This document shows positions 16,831-63,969 of a DNA stretch of 64,000 bases, in pieces. The translations under genes were made by a program, and so were the position numbers. Under the pieces are notes generated by a model. That model was not told the origin of the DNA. It did not search any database and was given only the letters and a program-made list of their open reading frames with translations. The stretch spans positions 3,712,608-3,776,607 of the forward strand of contig OX638345.1 of the NCBI GenBank assembly GCA_951813535.1, given 5' to 3'. Every line of letters begins with the position of its first letter. Position 1 is the first letter of the stretch. The stretch is from an uncultured Dehalococcoidia bacterium. Its GTDB lineage: Bacteria > Chloroflexota > Dehalococcoidia > Lucifugimonadales > UBA3495.

Positions 16831-17809
16831 ACAGGTAATAGATATTCGGTTGCCCGATCTCGATCGGCAAGTTCGAAAGTGGGTTCACCTGTTCCTGACC
16901 CAGGGCCCCCATCAGGGGTGGCCCGTACTGATCTTCGGGCGCCTCGCCGTCGCGGCCCGACCTGGACTCGGCGGCCGCGTCGCCATCATGCGCGGCAAGT
17001 TCGTTCTGCGGCGCATGCACGAGCTGGGCGCGCCACCCGTATTTTTCGAAGACTTCCGCGTTCACGTCGACGATGCCGTATCTGCCGATGCCGGCCAGTT
17101 CGGCCGCCTTTTCGACCCCGTCGCCGGTAAAGCCGATGGCGTCAGCCAGGCCCAGGGACACTGCATCCTGTCCCGCGTAGAGGTTGCCTTCGAGCAACTG
17201 TGCTTCGGTAATGCGGAGACGGTCGCCTCGCTCATGGATCACCATCTTGGCGAACCGATCCTTGATCACGTCAATCAGGGCAACCCAATGCTGCCTGGAG
17301 CCACCGGTCAGCTTGTTTGGACCCGTGGTCGTGATAATTTCGGGAAAGACCGGCGGCAGCGTCCCGCCCGATATCCCGACGACACCGACATTGCCGACCA
17401 GGGAGGACGGCTGGGCGAAGATGTAGTTGCCGCCCATTGCCATCATGAAGCCGCCACTGGCGACCATGCCGTTCATCACGATGACCACCGGTTTTTCTTC
17501 CCGCAGGCGGCTGGTGTGGAAGTACAGGCGCTCGCTGGAGGACGCGCCCCCGCCCGGGCTGGAGAGGGAGATCACCACCGCTTTGATCGAGTCGTCCTGC
17601 AGTGCGTAGTCGAGGTGCCGCCCGATGACGAACGTCGACCCTTCATCGATAACGGTGAACGGGATGTTGATCACGCCAACGGCAGGTTTGCCTGGGGCGA
17701 CGAAGAAGAATATCACCCCGCCGACCACGAGGCCGAGGATCACGGCCGCCGGTCCGGCAACATACCAACTAGTCAGGGATCTTCCCAATATGTTGAGTTT
17801 CTCAATCAC
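16811..17809 (-). CDS. SppA-like signal peptide peptidase (S49 family)
   Basis: S49 proteases degrade cleaved signal peptides and membrane peptides with a Ser/Lys dyad. One N-terminal membrane segment (residues 17-37) anchors the 332 aa protein. The nucleophile is Ser118 in MVASGGFMMAMG, after the conserved SLSSPGGGASSSE turn (residues 81-93); Lys166 in TTTGPNKLTGG is spaced 48 residues on, close to the 52 of characterised SppA enzymes, and is the likely base. AQPSSLVGNVGVVG is also typical. The protein is followed by an acidic C-terminal tail not common in SppA. It heads an operon with the DUF4350-like and lipoprotein genes. Confidence 0.85.
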   Translation of the reverse strand: MIEKLNILGRSLTSWYVAGPAAVILGLVVGGVIFFFVAPGKPAVGVINIPFTVIDEGSTFVIGRHLDYALQDDSIKAVVISLSSPGGGASSSERLYFHTSRLREEKPVVIVMNGMVASGGFMMAMGGNYIFAQPSSLVGNVGVVGISGGTLPPVFPEIITTTGPNKLTGGSRQHWVALIDVIKDRFAKMVIHERGDRLRITEAQLLEGNLYAGQDAVSLGLADAIGFTGDGVEKAAELAGIGRYGIVDVNAEVFEKYGWRAQLVHAPQNELAAHDGDAAAESRSGRDGEAPEDQYGPPLMGALGQEQVNPLSNLPIEIGQPNIYYLYAGYGH

Positions 17810-17939
17810 GGGGCACGCATGTTATCACAGGGCTGAGAAAATCGTACAACCCCTTCGTCTTGCGTGTATACGCACACGCCCTTGCATCGGTTTCATGCCA
17901 CCGCTACGATCTTGCGCAATTGCTATAGGAGATCAATCC

Positions 17940-18320
17940 ATGCACCATTGGAACGTCGGCGGCGACATCTACATCGGTTGGCCCGACCACGGCGCTGAAG
18001 AACGCCGCTACACCATCGTAGATGTCGACCTGTTCGGCAAGGTGTTCCGGGCGCGGGTGACCGACGGAGAGCGGCAGGGCGGGTTCATGGTGATCTTCGA
18101 TTGCCCCAACATCGTGCTGGAGCAATTGGCCGAGCAGGCGTCCCACGCACTGGGATTCCGCGTCATCGTGTCCAGCCTGCGCGCCAGTATTGAAGGCAAC
18201 ATTGTGCGCAGCTTCGACTACGAGTGGTACCCCACGCCGGAATACGAAGAGCGGCCCCACGCGCTGGCGACCACCCTGGCCAGCCTGTACAACGATATCG
18301 CGCCGGGCCAGGCTGGCTAG
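17940..18320 (+). CDS. Hypothetical protein (126 aa)
   Basis: The protein is soluble and alpha/beta in appearance, beginning MHHWNVGGDIYIGWPDHGAE and containing FMVIFDCPNIVLEQLAEQA. No family is recognised. The frame is open for another 105 codons upstream, but those would overlap the SppA-like gene on the other strand; the ATG used is preceded by AGGAG at 8 nt. Its stop codon overlaps the stop of the convergent VWA gene by 4 nt (CTAG), which means neither has a private terminator in between. Confidence 0.65.
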   Translation: MHHWNVGGDIYIGWPDHGAEERRYTIVDVDLFGKVFRARVTDGERQGGFMVIFDCPNIVLEQLAEQASHALGFRVIVSSLRASIEGNIVRSFDYEWYPTPEYEERPHALATTLASLYNDIAPGQAG

Positions 18321-19711
18321 CCGCCCCCGCCCGGAATGTTCGGGTGACCCCACAGCGGGTGCCGGAAGGTCGGGGCCAGCGCCGGGTTCAGTTCACGCCG
18401 CGACCGGGCGGCCGCTCCGCCGTCGTGGATCGCGCTACTCTCCGGCTCGTTCGCCGACTCGCTATCCGAGGCGGATTTGCGTCGCGCCGTCGGGGGCGCG
18501 CGACGCGCCGTCAGCCGGCTCAGGTGGACGGCCAGTTCCTGCAGGCTGTGCAGGTTGTGCGCGGGCAGAAAGTCGTCGATGTGAGGCAGGGCGGCCTGCA
18601 TCCCCCGGGTCAGCGGCTCGTAGCCCGGCGACCCGAGGAGCGGGTTCAACCAGATCAGGCGGTGGCAACTGCGCTGCAGACGAGCCATCTCGTGTGACAG
18701 CAGCTCAGGGTCGCCCCGGTCCCACCCGTCGGATATGACCAGGACCACCGCGCCGCCGCGCAGGACGCGACGGGCCCAGCGGTAGTTGAACGCCTTGATC
18801 GCCTCGCCGATGCGGGTGCCGCCGGCCCAGTCGGGAACGGCACGGGCCACCTCCGATACGGCGCGGTCGACGCCGCGGTGCTCCAGGTGGCGCGTGATGC
18901 GGGTCAGGCGCGTGGCGAAAAGGAAGGCCTCCAACTGCTGCCCGCTCACCGCAACCGTGTGCACGAAATGGAGCAGCATGCGGGTGTAGCGTTCCATGGA
19001 GCCGCTGACGTCGCAGATCAGCACCAGAGGGCGGGGCTTGGTTTTGCGCCGGCGGTGGGCGATGTCCAGCATCTCGCCGCCGTAGGACAGGCTGCGGCGC
19101 ATGGTGCGCCTCAGGTCCACGTCGTGGCCATCACCCCACGTAAGCCTGCGGGTGCGACGGGTGCCCAGGTCCCATTCCAGGTCCGCCATCAGGACACGCG
19201 CCGCCGCGACTTCGGCCGGCGTGTACTCGGCAAAATCCCGCTGCCGCAAGACCTCCCGCGCGCTGAAGGATCGTTGGAGATCCACCACCGGCTGCCGGTC
19301 GCCGGCATCGTCGGGGTCATCGTCGCCACCCGGAGGCCCGTCGGATGTATCCTCGCGGTGGGGCATGACTCGGGGCGTGCGGTAGCGGCGCTCCTCGCCC
19401 ATGGAGCGCAGGTCGCGCATGCTTCGGCCGTGGGCCGGCCGTCGCCAGAACACCTGGAAGGCCTCGTCGAAAAGCTCGAGGTCGCTGCGGCGGTGCACCA
19501 GCAGCGCCCGCGCCGCCAGGCGGAAGTCGTTGCGGTTCCCCCCGATGGGCACGAACTCGGTGGCGCGCACCAGGTCGAGCATATTCCCGGAGCCCACGTC
19601 CAGTCCCAAGCGGCGGAGCACCTCGCCGAACATCAGCAGGTTGGACAGGATCGTGCCATCACCGGCGTCGGCCGGCGCGGTGTGCAGGTTGACGCTGACG
19701 CCGGTGGTCAT
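18317..19711 (-). CDS. CoxE-like von Willebrand factor A domain protein
   Basis: The 464 aa protein matches the CoxE/COG3552 group: an N-terminal helical part, an acidic low-complexity linker (about residues 115-142), and a C-terminal VWA domain with a MIDAS motif DVSGS at 234-238, a TRIGEAIKAFN threonine position and ISDGWDRGD. CoxE works with the MoxR-type ATPase CoxD in maturation of the CO dehydrogenase-type active site; other members belong to unrelated MoxR-VWA chaperone pairs. No AAA+ partner is adjacent. Two MoeA genes lie 3-7 kb away, which is compatible with, but does not prove, a molybdoenzyme link. Confidence 0.83.
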   Translation of the reverse strand: MTTGVSVNLHTAPADAGDGTILSNLLMFGEVLRRLGLDVGSGNMLDLVRATEFVPIGGNRNDFRLAARALLVHRRSDLELFDEAFQVFWRRPAHGRSMRDLRSMGEERRYRTPRVMPHREDTSDGPPGGDDDPDDAGDRQPVVDLQRSFSAREVLRQRDFAEYTPAEVAAARVLMADLEWDLGTRRTRRLTWGDGHDVDLRRTMRRSLSYGGEMLDIAHRRRKTKPRPLVLICDVSGSMERYTRMLLHFVHTVAVSGQQLEAFLFATRLTRITRHLEHRGVDRAVSEVARAVPDWAGGTRIGEAIKAFNYRWARRVLRGGAVVLVISDGWDRGDPELLSHEMARLQRSCHRLIWLNPLLGSPGYEPLTRGMQAALPHIDDFLPAHNLHSLQELAVHLSRLTARRAPPTARRKSASDSESANEPESSAIHDGGAAARSRRELNPALAPTFRHPLWGHPNIPGGGG

Positions 19712-19720
19712 AGGACGTGG

Positions 19721-20083
19721 TTATGGATTGCTCAACGCGCGCGCGAAGGCCCAAGATTCGGCCGAAATCTTTTCCTCCAGCGTCCAGTGCATTTTGTCCT
19801 GCCAGCTGGCGATGTAGTGAATTTCCGTCGGTACGATCACTTCGTATTCGCCGCCGAAGTAGCGACCATGAGTACGCTTGATGGTTTCCACCGAATCCGC
19901 GCCGAGAATAACATACTCCATACGGACGGGCTTGCCGACTTTCAAGCAGGCGTTGAGTTCGTCCATCTGCTCGTCCTCCAGCCGACAAAAGCGTTCTTCA
20001 GCATCCTCAATGTCATCATACACCGTGATTCTGGTGGGGATTTTGCCGTGCCGGTCGTGTTCAATCAGAAAGCTCAGGCTCAT
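19721..20083 (-). CDS. Hypothetical protein, candidate antitoxin to small RelA/SpoT-domain gene
   Basis: This 120 aa protein (counting from the ATG with an AAGGAG site 7 nt upstream) is unrecognised. It contains an acidic helix (DDIEDAEERFCRLEDEQMDEL) and an aromatic-rich C-terminal half. It lies 30 bp downstream of a small synthetase-domain gene in the same orientation. ToxSAS toxins are often encoded beside small unrelated antitoxin genes, so a partner role is possible, but this is inferred only from position. An upstream in-frame ATG at 20101 lacks a ribosome binding site. Confidence 0.6.
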   Translation of the reverse strand: MSLSFLIEHDRHGKIPTRITVYDDIEDAEERFCRLEDEQMDELNACLKVGKPVRMEYVILGADSVETIKRTHGRYFGGEYEVIVPTEIHYIASWQDKMHWTLEEKISAESWAFARALSNP

Positions 20084-20113
20084 CTCAGTTCTCCTTGTCA
20101 TGGCCCGGCTCGG

Positions 20114-20752
20114 TTACCTAGAGTGGGCCGATGTTATCACACTGCGGGTTTGTGCGACGGCGGATTCGGACAGGTCAATACCCGCCAAGTCGCACCGCCA
20201 GGCCAGTTCCGACAACTCTAAAAGCGCGTCATTGACCGCTGGGTGCCCGCCGCCATATTTGATGGATATATCGTACCCCGCGGCTTGCTCTGAGACTTGT
20301 TGCCAGCGGAACTGGTTGCGCGTTTGTACCTGGATCTCCATGAGCTGGCCCCGATAGCGAATGTCGAAGTGGACCGCCCGATACCCGAATTTGGGGCTGT
20401 CGCTTTTGTCGTCAACTTGCTGGACATCGTAGGCTGCTAGCAACCGGGCCACCACGGCCTGCTGCTCAGCCCGGCCCGATACGATGATGCGGCAGCCATC
20501 CAAGTCGGTCACTTGAGACAGCGCCAGATCAGGCCGCCGCTGCAACTTTGCCGCCACCGTTTCAATGCGCTTGGTTCGGGAAGCGAATTCGGCGTCCGGC
20601 GTCAGAGACCGTAACTCCGTTTCCAAATCTCTCCTGAGGCGATGCAGTACCCGGCGGTACTCACGGTAAATTCCCCGGTCAGCGACGGCAATACCCTGCC
20701 GCAGCCGTTCGCCAAGTGCGTCAATTTCGTCGTCTGTGAAGTGAATTGTCAA
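20114..20752 (-). CDS. Small RelA/SpoT-domain (p)ppGpp-synthetase-like protein, possible toxSAS
   Basis: Small alarmone synthetases transfer pyrophosphate from ATP to GDP/GTP, or in toxSAS members to tRNA 3' ends. The 212 aa protein contains the domain alone, without hydrolase or regulatory domains. Key residues are present: Asp83 in SQVTDLDGCRIIV, the substrate-stacking Tyr124 in FGYRAVHFDI, and Glu139 in MEIQVQT, followed by an H-like helix (FRWQQVSEQAAGYDI). Residues 21-80 form a charged N-terminal helix pair. The downstream neighbour is a small unknown gene, a typical arrangement for toxSAS pairs; a housekeeping small synthetase remains an alternative. Confidence 0.82.
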   Translation of the reverse strand: MTIHFTDDEIDALGERLRQGIAVADRGIYREYRRVLHRLRRDLETELRSLTPDAEFASRTKRIETVAAKLQRRPDLALSQVTDLDGCRIIVSGRAEQQAVVARLLAAYDVQQVDDKSDSPKFGYRAVHFDIRYRGQLMEIQVQTRNQFRWQQVSEQAAGYDISIKYGGGHPAVNDALLELSELAWRCDLAGIDLSESAVAQTRSVITSAHSR

Positions 20753-20801
20753 CCCGGCTCCTCAACGCGCTACCGTGCGATTACCGTACTGCAAGCGCAA
20801 A

Positions 20802-22112
20802 TCAGGCCAGCCTGCCGCCGAACCTGCCCGGCAGCGCCGCCGCGGCGACCACCGCCAGGGCGGTCATCAGGGCCACGGCCAGCACCCCCGTAACGAGGGA
20901 GCCCGTCATCTGGGCCAGCGCCCCGGCGATCACCGGCCCGGCCCCGAAACCCACTGCTCCGAAGGTCTGCACCAACCCCGACAGCACCGACACCTCCCGC
21001 GCCCTGATATTTCTGAACTCGAAGGGAAGTATCTCCATGGCCGGTACGAACACCCACGCAATGCCCAACCCGGTCAGGGCCAACGCGGCGATCACCACAT
21101 TGCCAGCCAGCACGGCGACCACCGTGGCGACCAGGTTCAGCGCGGCCGGCAGCAGCACCATCAGCCGCCGGTTGGTGATGTGATTGAATATCCAGCTTCC
21201 CGCCAACGCCCCCGGTATCAGGACGTAGTACAGGAACCCGAAGAGCACGCTTCCGGATGTAATCGCGATGCCCCGGTGCGCCTCCAGGATGGTGGGCAGG
21301 AAGGTCAGGATCGTCGTCCATGAAGCCGACAGCCACAGCATAACCACCCCCAGCAGCCAGGCCTGGGGATATGCCACCAACGACCGCACCAACGGCGGAC
21401 GGGCGTTTGGCTCTTCCGCCGCGCCCTCTGCGGAAACGTCCTGCGATGGGGCTGTTGCGACTGCGTCTTCGGGCCCCTGCGCGGGGTCCCGTGCGCTCCA
21501 GATCAGTGCGGCCCACACCAGCAGGTGCCCGGCCATGAGCGCCCCCTGGACGAAGTAGGCCAGTCTCCAGCTGTCCAGCACCACGATGATGATGGGCCCG
21601 AAGGTGAGGGCCCCCGCCATGAAAGTCGAATGCATGGACAGCCCCAGGGAGCTCACCGTGGAGTACTGGCGGGGAGCGGCCCACCAGCGGAGCAGCAACG
21701 GCCGCGCCGGCGCCATCGAAGCGTGGACCAGCACTGTCAGGAACCGCGACGCCAGCAGGGTCCAGAACCCGATGGCCAGACCCTGGCTGAACAGACAGGG
21801 AGCCATGAGCGCCAATGCGATCAGCACCCGGCGGTTGGGGTTGAACCGGGCGAACAGCAGGCTGAAGGGGACCAGCAGCACCGCTGGCGTGCCCCACCAG
21901 ACGGCTTGCAGAATGCCGATTTCCAGGTAGCTGAGGTCCAGGTCCGCCTGCACAAAGGGAAGAAACAGCCCGAGTCCGTAGGATGACAGCACCACCGTGC
22001 TCTGGTGGGTCCGGTTCAGCAGCAGGACCGACCAGGCGCGGACCGAGGTCGTTGCTTCGGAACCGGGTCGTTCCGGATCGGATAACCCGCTGGCTGCTTC
22101 CTCGGCAGCCAA
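20802..22112 (-). CDS. MFS transporter
   Basis: The 436 aa inner membrane protein has about twelve hydrophobic segments beginning near residue 37, and a loop with FARFNPNRRVL between segments 2 and 3 where the family has its charged loop-2 motif. A long hydrophilic loop (about residues 190-225, rich in Pro/Glu/Ala) separates the halves. The substrate cannot be deduced. The start follows the stop of the TPR gene by 2 bp, so the two are co-transcribed, and the chain continues upstream to the moeA genes through a 4 nt overlap. Confidence 0.88.
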   Translation of the reverse strand: MAAEEAASGLSDPERPGSEATTSVRAWSVLLLNRTHQSTVVLSSYGLGLFLPFVQADLDLSYLEIGILQAVWWGTPAVLLVPFSLLFARFNPNRRVLIALALMAPCLFSQGLAIGFWTLLASRFLTVLVHASMAPARPLLLRWWAAPRQYSTVSSLGLSMHSTFMAGALTFGPIIIVVLDSWRLAYFVQGALMAGHLLVWAALIWSARDPAQGPEDAVATAPSQDVSAEGAAEEPNARPPLVRSLVAYPQAWLLGVVMLWLSASWTTILTFLPTILEAHRGIAITSGSVLFGFLYYVLIPGALAGSWIFNHITNRRLMVLLPAALNLVATVVAVLAGNVVIAALALTGLGIAWVFVPAMEILPFEFRNIRAREVSVLSGLVQTFGAVGFGAGPVIAGALAQMTGSLVTGVLAVALMTALAVVAAAALPGRFGGRLA

Positions 22113-63330: not shown

Positions 63331-63405
63331 TGGAGCCCAAGGGCGGAATCGAACCGCCGACCCCGTTCTTACCAAGAACGTGCTCTACCTCTGAGCTACT
63401 TGGGC
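63331..63405 (-). tRNA. tRNA-Thr (anticodon GGU)
   Basis: Minus-strand cloverleaf with acceptor GCCCAAG/CTTGGGC, anticodon stem CGTTC/GAACG with loop TTGGTAA giving anticodon GGT, T-loop GTTCGATTC and encoded CCA (preceded by discriminator T). It reads threonine codons ACC/ACU and lies 77 bp upstream of tuf. Confidence 0.96.
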
Positions 63406-63435
63406 GCGTGGGTTGGTTGTATCAGAAATTTGGTG

Positions 63436-63523
63436 TGGTGGAGGGGGCAGGATTCGAACCTGCGAAGCCCGTCAGGGCGCCAGATTTACAGTCTGGTGGC
63501 TTTAACCACTCACCCACCCCTCC
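63436..63523 (-). tRNA. tRNA-Tyr (anticodon GUA)
   Basis: Minus-strand class II tRNA with acceptor GGAGGGG/CCCCTCC, anticodon loop CTGTAAA (anticodon GTA), a long variable arm and encoded ACCA 3' end. Length of 88 nt fits tRNA-Tyr. Confidence 0.96.
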
Positions 63524-63569
63524 ATGTGCTAACTCCCGGACAGATGATCCAGTTTCGACGATTTCGATT

Positions 63570-63645
63570 TGGAGCCCCAGAGGGGACTCGAACCCCTAAC
63601 CTGCCGATTACAAATCGGCTGCGCTGCCAATTGCGCCACCGGGGC
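63570..63645 (-). tRNA. tRNA-Thr (anticodon UGU)
   Basis: Minus-strand cloverleaf with acceptor GCCCCGG/CTGGGGC, anticodon loop TTTGTAA (anticodon TGT), T-loop GTTCGAGTC and encoded CCA. Reads ACA. First gene of the tuf operon. Confidence 0.96.
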
Positions 63646-63693
63646 GCGGGGTTGGCTCCGCTGAACCCGACCGGCCAAACCGCGCAATACGCT

Positions 63694-63719
63694 AAAAAAG
63701 CCCCGGCAACTTCCGGGGC
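63694..63719 (-). terminator. Hairpin with T tract in the tRNA-tuf leader
   Basis: On the minus strand GCCCCGG-AAGTTG-CCGGGGC is followed by TTTTTT (63699-63694). It has the shape of an intrinsic terminator, but lies between the putative promoter (63746-63774) and tRNA-Thr(UGU), so it may be an attenuator. Confidence 0.75.
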
Positions 63720-63745
63720 CTTCCGGTTTTAGCCAATCGCATAAT

Positions 63746-63774
63746 AGGTTACGCAAAACCGTTAAAGTTGTCAA
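63746..63774 (-). promoter_or_regulatory. Putative promoter of the tRNA-tuf operon
   Basis: On the minus strand TTGACA (63774-63769), a 17 nt spacer and TAACCT (63751-63746) lie about 100 bp upstream of tRNA-Thr(UGU). The -35 is perfect; the -10 matches at 3 of 6 positions, although an adjacent TATTAT gives an alternative with too long a spacer. Confidence 0.6.
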
Positions 63775-63878
63775 CGGTTGTCGGCGATTCTAAACGGCAA
63801 ACAGCGGTTTCAGCACGGGTCGCGTTGGGGCGTTGCGCTGGCCGGTCAAGGGACGGCGGTGTCCTCCCGAGAGTGGGG

Positions 63879-63884
63879 TATAAT
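63879..63884 (+). promoter_or_regulatory. -10 box of the tRNA-Gly gene
   Basis: TATAAT lies 11 bp before the tRNA-Gly 5' end; no convincing -35 box was found in the 25 bp further upstream. Confidence 0.55.
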
Positions 63885-63895
63885 GATGGTGTTGA

Positions 63896-63969
63896 GCGGG
63901 CGTAGCTTAGTGGTAAAGCCCCAGCCTTCCAAGCTGGCTACGTGGGTTCGATTCCCATCGCCCGCTCCA
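63896..63969 (+). tRNA. tRNA-Gly (anticodon UCC)
   Basis: Plus-strand cloverleaf with acceptor GCGGGCG/CGCCCGC, anticodon loop CTTCCAA (anticodon TCC), T-loop GTTCGATTC and encoded CCA. It reads GGA/GGG and is divergent from the Thr-Tyr-Thr-tuf operon. Confidence 0.96.

What the first reader, a model, noticed from the sequence alone, without database searches (positions are those of the whole stretch)
19721..20752. Candidate toxSAS toxin-antitoxin pair of RelA/SpoT type
A 212 aa stand-alone synthetase domain with catalytic Asp83, Tyr124 and Glu139 conserved, plus a 120 aa unknown small protein 30 bp downstream. This is the format of toxSAS modules, several of which pyrophosphorylate tRNA. The neighbouring small protein does not match any antitoxin I know.
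Basis: inference. Interest (0 to 1): 0.6.

Follow-up and report, generated by a model that had tools for sequence, protein, structure and literature searches.

The report
PhRel/CapRel-type toxSAS toxin-antitoxin pair
Two neighbouring genes in a Chloroflexota-like bacterium look like a known kind of toxin-antitoxin switch, in which an alarmone-synthetase-like enzyme would block tRNAs and a small partner would keep it off, probably as a defence against viruses; it is a new and fast-evolving member of that kind rather than a new kind.

Summary
The 212-aa protein (20114-20752, minus strand) is a RelA/SpoT synthetase domain with D83, Y124 and E139 conserved. In a tree of 72 domains it groups with the PhRel/CapRel toxins, not with RelQ. 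The 120-aa partner, 30 bp downstream, is a divergent, enlarged relative of Phrann gp30, the antitoxin of PhRel (profile-profile E = 9e-12). It keeps the position of the tyrosine motif that blocks the ATP site in CapRel (H72-G-R-Y75). In 14 genomes of the genus there are 8 intact pairs at two fixed loci, 4 loci with the antitoxin but a lost or broken toxin, and none with the reverse. At the window's locus the pair lies between an MFS gene and a CoxE-like gene that adjoin in most relatives lacking it; it is lower in GC and far more divergent than both. Best explanation: a bipartite type II toxSAS system that pyrophosphorylates tRNA CCA ends, held off by its pZFD-type antitoxin and probably triggered by phage. 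Toxicity, neutralisation and substrate are inferred, not shown. New member of a known kind; the enlarged antitoxin with a variable tail and the repeated toxin loss are its unusual features.

The parts
20114..20752 (-). toxSAS-type synthetase (putative toxin), 212 aa, TTG start; residues corresponding to CapRel R79, R116 and Y155 are R59, R88 and Y124; D83 and E139 also conserved
19721..20083 (-). pZFD-type antitoxin, 120 aa, homologue of Phrann gp30 (ATphRel) and of the CapRel C-terminal domain
19859..19870 (-). H72-G-R-Y75, at the place of the CapRel Y352-x-x-Y355 neutralisation motif; Y75 is the only invariant column in 16 diverse homologues
   Evidence: role of the motif from PMC9712102 and PMC11782079 (passages)
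19724..19846 (-). C-terminal extension of the antitoxin (residues 80-120), absent from gp30 and among the most variable parts of the pair
20758..20763 (-). Shine-Dalgarno-like GAGGAG 5 nt before the TTG start of the synthetase
   Evidence: read by eye
20091..20096 (-). Shine-Dalgarno-like AAGGAG 7 nt before the ATG start of the antitoxin
   Evidence: read by eye
20802..22112 (-). MFS transporter, conserved upstream neighbour; adjoins the CoxE-like gene in 6 of 7 genus genomes without the pair (context, not part of the system)
18317..19711 (-). CoxE-like VWA-domain protein, conserved downstream neighbour (context, not part of the system)

Best explanation
A bipartite (unfused) type II toxin-antitoxin module of the PhRel/CapRel branch of toxSAS. 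Inferred mechanism: the RelA/SpoT-fold enzyme transfers pyrophosphate from ATP to the 3'-CCA end of uncharged tRNA, so that the tRNA can no longer be aminoacylated and translation stops. The small protein docks its H-x-x-Y turn into the ATP-donor site, between R59 and R88, and keeps the enzyme off. A phage product, probably sensed by the antitoxin, releases the block and the infected cell shuts down. Shown here: both genes, their homologies, conserved active-site and neutralisation-motif positions, linkage, cassette-like place and repeated loss of the toxin alone. Inferred from characterised relatives: toxicity, tRNA as acceptor, direct neutralisation, phage trigger.
For: Single-sequence scans of the window proteins: synthetase to phrog_4773 (3.5e-18) and PADLOC PDC-S33 (1e-20), small protein to phrog_22117 (1.3e-5). 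phrog_22117 is the family of Phrann gp30 (3.1e-38); phrog_4773 is that of Phrann gp29/PhRel (8.3e-73) and of a fused CapRel-like protein (3e-133). PDC-S33 matches fused CapRel-like proteins end to end. Profile-profile: 11 genus small proteins against 5 phage/plasmid ones including gp30, probability 97.4, E 9.4e-12; 5 against 5, E 7.5e-10. Tree of 72 synthetase domains: window genus plus PhRel-type sequences plus two other sequences of the phylum, support 95; whole PhRel/CapRel clade 86, apart from 6 RelQ sequences. In 49 viral loci the pZFD domain was found in 31 (29 fused, 2 as a separate ORF), all inside that clade; 16 of the 18 without it fall outside. Foldseek's best match of the confident synthetase model is CapRel 7ztb (3.1e-11). 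Linkage and loss pattern in 14 genomes. Lower GC (pair 0.570, CoxE 0.705, MFS 0.668) and an abrupt identity drop at the pair's edges fit an acquired or exchanged defence cassette.
Against: A profile built only from the 8 genus synthetases scores B. subtilis RelQ (46.0 bits) level with CapRel (44.4) among solved structures and does not list FaRel2; VIA-align also ties them (RelQ Z 17.6, CapRel Z 16.9). So the synthetase alone does not exclude a (p)ppGpp maker; the case rests on the tree, the phrog match and the antitoxin. A support of 86 is modest for ultrafast bootstrap, and RelP, FaRel2, FaRel and PhRel2 were not in the tree. The small protein's model is poor (pLDDT 69.6) and matched no solved fold. 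The first tyrosine of YXXY is H here, as in gp30. No activity was measured.
Confidence: 0.86

Rival explanations
1. A toxSAS toxin-antitoxin pair that works by another chemistry: the enzyme makes (pp)pApp or (p)ppGpp and so depletes ATP or signals starvation, with the small protein as its inhibitor.
For: Substrate cannot be read from sequence; RelQ is as close as CapRel in the genus-only profile and in VIA scores. A pZFD-like domain also occurs in AT2faRel, partner of the (pp)pApp maker FaRel (PMC11782079, passages).
Against: In AT2faRel the Tis1-like domain, not the pZFD, neutralises (PMC11782079); here the pZFD-type protein stands alone, as for PhRel, whose subfamily PMC11559606 (passages) lists among tRNA modifiers. 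The tree places it beside PhRel.
Confidence: 0.09
2. A housekeeping small alarmone synthetase (RelQ/RelP-like) that happens to sit next to a small regulatory protein.
For: Intact in a fixed place in an operon-like row of genes in several genomes; RelQ ties with CapRel; weak NCBIfam YjbM match of 20.2 bits.
Against: That YjbM match is far under its cut-off of 320. The tree places it outside RelQ. Patchy: 9 of 50 family genomes, all in one genus, and absent together with the small gene from both loci in 4 of 14 genus genomes. The partner is an antitoxin homologue. The genome has its own long Rel.
Confidence: 0.03
3. A decayed or domesticated remnant: genes still open but no longer active, or the small protein kept for another role.
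For: The synthetase is broken or lost in 4 other genus loci and 3 loci elsewhere in the phylum, and the window's copy starts with TTG.
Against: In the window genome all catalytic positions are intact and pN/pS is 0.24-0.33 for the synthetase, so selection still acts.
Confidence: 0.02

Closest known systems
PhRel-ATphRel (gp29-gp30) of mycobacteriophage Phrann
   Same: Bipartite, toxin gene first, small antitoxin gene directly downstream; synthetase in the same sub-clade (support 95); antitoxin homologous, with the same H-x-x-Y at the neutralisation motif.
   Different: Antitoxin is 120 aa instead of 71, with about 11 extra residues near 39-49 and a 41-residue C-terminal extension; synthetase is 212 aa instead of 292; chromosomal, in an operon-like row of genes, not in a phage.
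CapRel (SJ46 and other fused forms; PADLOC PDC-S33, phrog_4773)
   Same: Same synthetase branch and same type of C-terminal/small domain; ATP-site arginines and G-loop tyrosine match (R59/R88/Y124 to R79/R116/Y155).
   Different: CapRel SJ46 is one fused chain; here two proteins. The first tyrosine of YXXY is histidine here.
FaRel2-ATfaRel2 of Coprobacillus sp. D7
   Same: Bipartite tRNA-modifying toxSAS with a pZFD antitoxin (PMC11782079, passages).
   Different: Synthetase much more distant (profile hit 4.7e-6 against 5e-31 for CapRel; no hit with the genus-only profile); its antitoxin has a circularly permuted pZFD (PMC11782079).
RelQ (YjbM/SAS1) of Bacillus subtilis
   Same: Same fold and catalytic residues; Z 17.6, rmsd 1.9 over 163 residues.
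   Different: Separate side of the tree. The RelQ-like gene fetched with neighbours on both sides lies between a CYTH-domain gene and an NAD kinase gene, without a small antitoxin gene.

Membership tests
toxSAS (PhRel/CapRel branch) | Stand-alone RelA/SpoT synthetase domain with intact active site, without hydrolase or regulatory domains | tested here: met
   212 aa, only PF04607; R59, R88, D83, Y124, E139 present
toxSAS (PhRel/CapRel branch) | Synthetase groups with PhRel/CapRel rather than housekeeping SAS | tested here: met
   Tree, support 95 and 86; phrog_4773 and PDC-S33 as best matches. Genus-only PDB profile and VIA scores alone tie with RelQ
toxSAS (PhRel/CapRel branch) | Linked to, or fused with, a pZFD-type antitoxin | tested here: met
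   8 of 8 intact synthetase loci in the genus
toxSAS (PhRel/CapRel branch) | YXXY-type neutralisation motif in the antitoxin | tested here: inconclusive
   Position kept, with Y75 invariant, but the first residue is H in 14 of 16 aligned homologues, Q in 1 and Y in 1; gp30 also has H
toxSAS (PhRel/CapRel branch) | Antitoxin adopts the pZFD fold | tested here: inconclusive
   Model pLDDT 69.6, no match in the library
toxSAS (PhRel/CapRel branch) | Toxic when expressed alone, neutralised by the partner | not testable with these tools
   needs expression; the one-sided loss of the toxin (4 loci to 0 in the genus) is only suggestive
toxSAS (PhRel/CapRel branch) | Pyrophosphorylates tRNA 3'-CCA | not testable with these tools
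   needs a biochemical assay
Housekeeping RelQ (YjbM) | Reaches the curated YjbM equivalog score | tested here: not met
   20.2 bits against a cut-off of 320
Housekeeping RelQ (YjbM) | Falls within the RelQ clade | tested here: not met
   (6 RelQ sequences; RelP not included)

The most novel reading that the evidence does not exclude
The pair is a rapidly exchanged defence cassette in which the enlarged antitoxin, through its variable 41-residue C-terminal extension, is itself the phage sensor of a bipartite toxSAS (in the papers read here sensing is shown for the fused CapRel), while the variable N-terminus of the toxin re-tunes tRNA choice. The orphan antitoxins left after toxin loss would be kept to protect against incoming copies of the toxin.
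Probability: 0.2. Interest if true: 0.55.

Novelty: new member of a known kind. Interest (0 to 1): 0.33.

Why it matters
It extends PhRel/CapRel-type toxSAS modules, in fused and two-gene form, to a phylum that the papers found and read here do not mention for them, and gives a natural series (intact, toxin broken, toxin deleted, both absent) at fixed sites for studying how such modules come and go. If the antitoxin tail senses phage, it would show how two-gene toxSAS systems are triggered, which PMC9712102 raises as a possibility.

Tried and rejected
Housekeeping RelQ: rejected on tree, family score and neighbour, though two scores tie. 'Unknown antitoxin': rejected. Purely vertical inheritance: first assumed from the fixed position, then weakened, because synonymous divergence of the pair mostly exceeds that of its neighbours (SAS dS 0.73-1.93 for window pairs against 0.33-0.52 for CoxE and MFS in the same genomes, G309 apart), while G306-G313 shows the reverse for the synthetase (0.29 against 0.48 for CoxE), and the identity profile is mosaic. 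Lower GC3 of the pair (0.68 against 0.85-0.88) can also raise apparent dS, so exchange is likely but not proven.

Toxin loss as a statistical test: within the genus 4 of 4 one-gene states lack the toxin. By my own arithmetic chance is 1/16 if both genes are lost equally and about 0.17 if loss scales with gene length, so this is not significant alone. One of the four (G309, locus 2) also lacks the first part of the antitoxin. Outside the genus G185, G035 and G362 show the same, but G035 and G362 were found with an antitoxin query, which cannot find the reverse; G151 is a 37-aa fragment. Assembly error in draft genomes cannot be excluded for G311, G185 and G035.

Led nowhere: phmmer of the synthetase alone against PDB, no hit; tblastn of the small protein in phages, no match, and in plasmids one short match at E 0.2; fold search with the small protein's model, no useful match, the absence of pZFD chains from that list being uninformative at this model quality; promoter and terminator scan, nothing on the minus strand; PADLOC scan of six neighbouring proteins, nothing; papers on toxSAS with Chloroflexi (0 papers) and CapRel with Chloroflexota or SAR202 (none of the 20 listed of 34 holds CapRel); PNAS 2020 toxSAS paper not held.

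Full report
Observation. The Pfam match is 8.5e-12. D83, Y124 and E139 are present and invariant among 11 aligned relatives. No other Pfam or NCBIfam family reaches its curated cut-off in either protein. Its only other RelA_SpoT match lies in an open frame of 780 aa, read as the housekeeping Rel.

What the small protein is. Scanned alone, it matched phrog_22117 at 1.3e-5. Phrann gp30 matches the same family at 3.1e-38. Zhang and colleagues (PMC9712102, passages read) treat the toxin and antitoxin regions of CapRel SJ46 as related to PhRel and ATphRel of phage Phrann. Profile-profile comparison of 11 small proteins of the window's genus with 5 phage and plasmid ones including gp30 gave probability 97.4 and E 9.4e-12. 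A wider profile of 16 small domains has the CapRel C-terminal domain as its top solved-structure match, in the right place but weak (E 0.028). The motif that fills the ATP-donor site in CapRel and ATfaRel2, YXXY (PMC9712102, PMC11782079, passages), lines up with H72-G-R-Y75. Y75 is the only invariant column of the 16. The first position is H in 14, Q in 1 and Y in 1 (the fused form), and it is H in gp30. Compared with gp30 the window protein has about 11 extra residues near 39-49 and a 41-residue C-terminal extension.

What the synthetase is. Its best matches in the phage and defence libraries are phrog_4773 and PADLOC PDC-S33, which are PhRel/CapRel families. In a maximum-likelihood tree of 72 domains (80 collected, 8 duplicates removed, the genome's long Rel as outgroup), the genus sequences join PhRel-type sequences and two other sequences of the phylum with support 95; the whole PhRel/CapRel clade has 86 and excludes all 6 RelQ sequences. 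RelP, FaRel, FaRel2 and PhRel2 were not included. Presence of the small domain follows this clade: of 49 viral loci, 29 have it fused, 2 as a separate ORF and 18 not. Of those 18, 16 lie outside the clade, one (L119) inside with a motif-like tail visible by eye, and one (L135) inside as a duplicate of a domain that in L134 carries the fused small domain. Against this, a profile of the 8 genus sequences scores RelQ 46.0 and CapRel 44.4 bits. The AlphaFold2 model (pLDDT 93.2) has CapRel as its first Foldseek match (3.1e-11), but the VIA scores tie (RelQ Z 17.6 at rmsd 1.9 over 163 residues, CapRel Z 16.9 at rmsd 3.4 over 198). The synthetase by itself would therefore leave some doubt; the partner and the tree decide.

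Linkage and loss. In 50 genomes of the family the synthetase was found in 9 and the small protein in 10, all in the window's genus of 14 genomes. Two fixed loci carry the module. Locus 1, between the MFS and CoxE-like genes: intact in 5 (G000, G306, G309, G313, G315); synthetase frame broken with small gene intact in 1 (G311); synthetase absent with small gene present in 1 (G317); both absent in 7, in 6 of which the MFS and CoxE-like genes are next to each other. Locus 2, behind a threonine-synthase-like gene and a MoaD/ThiS-like gene (names by eye from sequence, not from a family scan): intact in 3 (G310, G317, G318); small gene with a synthetase remnant in 2 (G314; G309, where a deletion has joined the remnant in frame to an antitoxin lacking its start); both absent in 9. 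So 8 intact pairs, 4 antitoxin-only loci, 0 toxin-only loci. In 400 phylum genomes, 15 had the small domain. 13 of the 15 have a synthetase match adjacent (8) or fused (5), and 2 of these 13 have a broken synthetase frame (G185, G035); G362 has none within the 1.5 kb fetched on each side and G151 is a fragment. In the reverse scan of 301 genomes with the synthetase, 6 of 6 hits have the small domain. This is the asymmetry expected of toxin and antitoxin, but the numbers are small (see Tried and rejected).

Cassette character. The pair has GC 0.570 against 0.705 for CoxE and 0.668 for MFS; GC is also low in the 4 other intact locus-1 pairs (0.554-0.562 against 0.635-0.652 for their loci), less so at locus 2 (0.572-0.617 against 0.604-0.626). 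Nucleotide identity among relatives is mostly 0.85-0.95 in the flanks, falls to 0.4-0.6 at the synthetase N-terminus and the antitoxin C-terminus in most comparisons, and returns to about 0.9 at the CoxE start; G306 and G313 keep 0.78-0.94 throughout the pair, and G000-G306 reach 0.82-0.90 only across the catalytic core. This looks like divergent or exchanged alleles at a fixed site. In FaRel2, K28 and R29 bind the tRNA acceptor stem, and that recognition region varies among toxSAS (PMC11559606, passages); that the variable N-terminus here has the same role is inference.

How it most likely works. By homology: ATP-dependent pyrophosphorylation of tRNA 3'-CCA, translation stop, and blocking of the ATP-donor site by the antitoxin. 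PhRel:ATphRel and CapRel are reported to give anti-phage defence (PMC11559606, PMC9712102, passages), so defence is the likely role here. None of these activities was tested.

Known or new. This is a new member of the PhRel/CapRel kind. PMC9712102 lists CapRel in Cyanobacteria, Actinobacteria, Proteobacteria, Spirochetes, Bacteroidetes and Firmicutes, and its main text does not contain 'Chloroflex'; one search found no held paper joining toxSAS with Chloroflexi, and none of the 20 listed papers of one search holds CapRel. That is a gap in print within the held library only; the founding 2020 survey was not held.

Noticed in passing
L040:4737-5225 (G309:C33), minus strand: At locus 2 a deletion has joined a synthetase N-terminal remnant in frame to the body of the antitoxin, which lost its own start: a possible natural route to fused forms, or plain decay.
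   Followed up: partly
L035, L036, L038 (G318, G317, G310), behind a MoaD/ThiS-like gene: A second, more divergent pair (36-39% synthetase identity to the window's) at another fixed locus; G317 holds this intact pair together with an orphan antitoxin at locus 1.
   Followed up: yes
window 20600-20301 compared with G306: Local high identity (0.82-0.90) to G306 across the catalytic core, with 0.57-0.67 on either side: mosaic, suggesting recombination inside the toxin gene.
   Followed up: partly
L161:1309-1734 (G362): An orphan pZFD-type antitoxin-like ORF without a synthetase in the 1.5 kb fetched on either side.
   Followed up: partly
L009, L011, L012 at the antitoxin end: In G306, G315 and G313 the antitoxin stop codon overlaps the CoxE start codon, so translation may be coupled; in the window the genes are 9 bp apart.
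   Followed up: no
window 17625-18320, plus strand: An ORF opposite in strand to its neighbours, conserved in relatives (up to 93% in part) but without a Pfam match above cut-off; it stands between the S49-peptidase-like and CoxE-like genes.
   Followed up: no
window 63331-63969: Cluster of four tRNA genes (Thr-GGT, Tyr-GTA, Thr-TGT, Gly-TCC).
   Followed up: no
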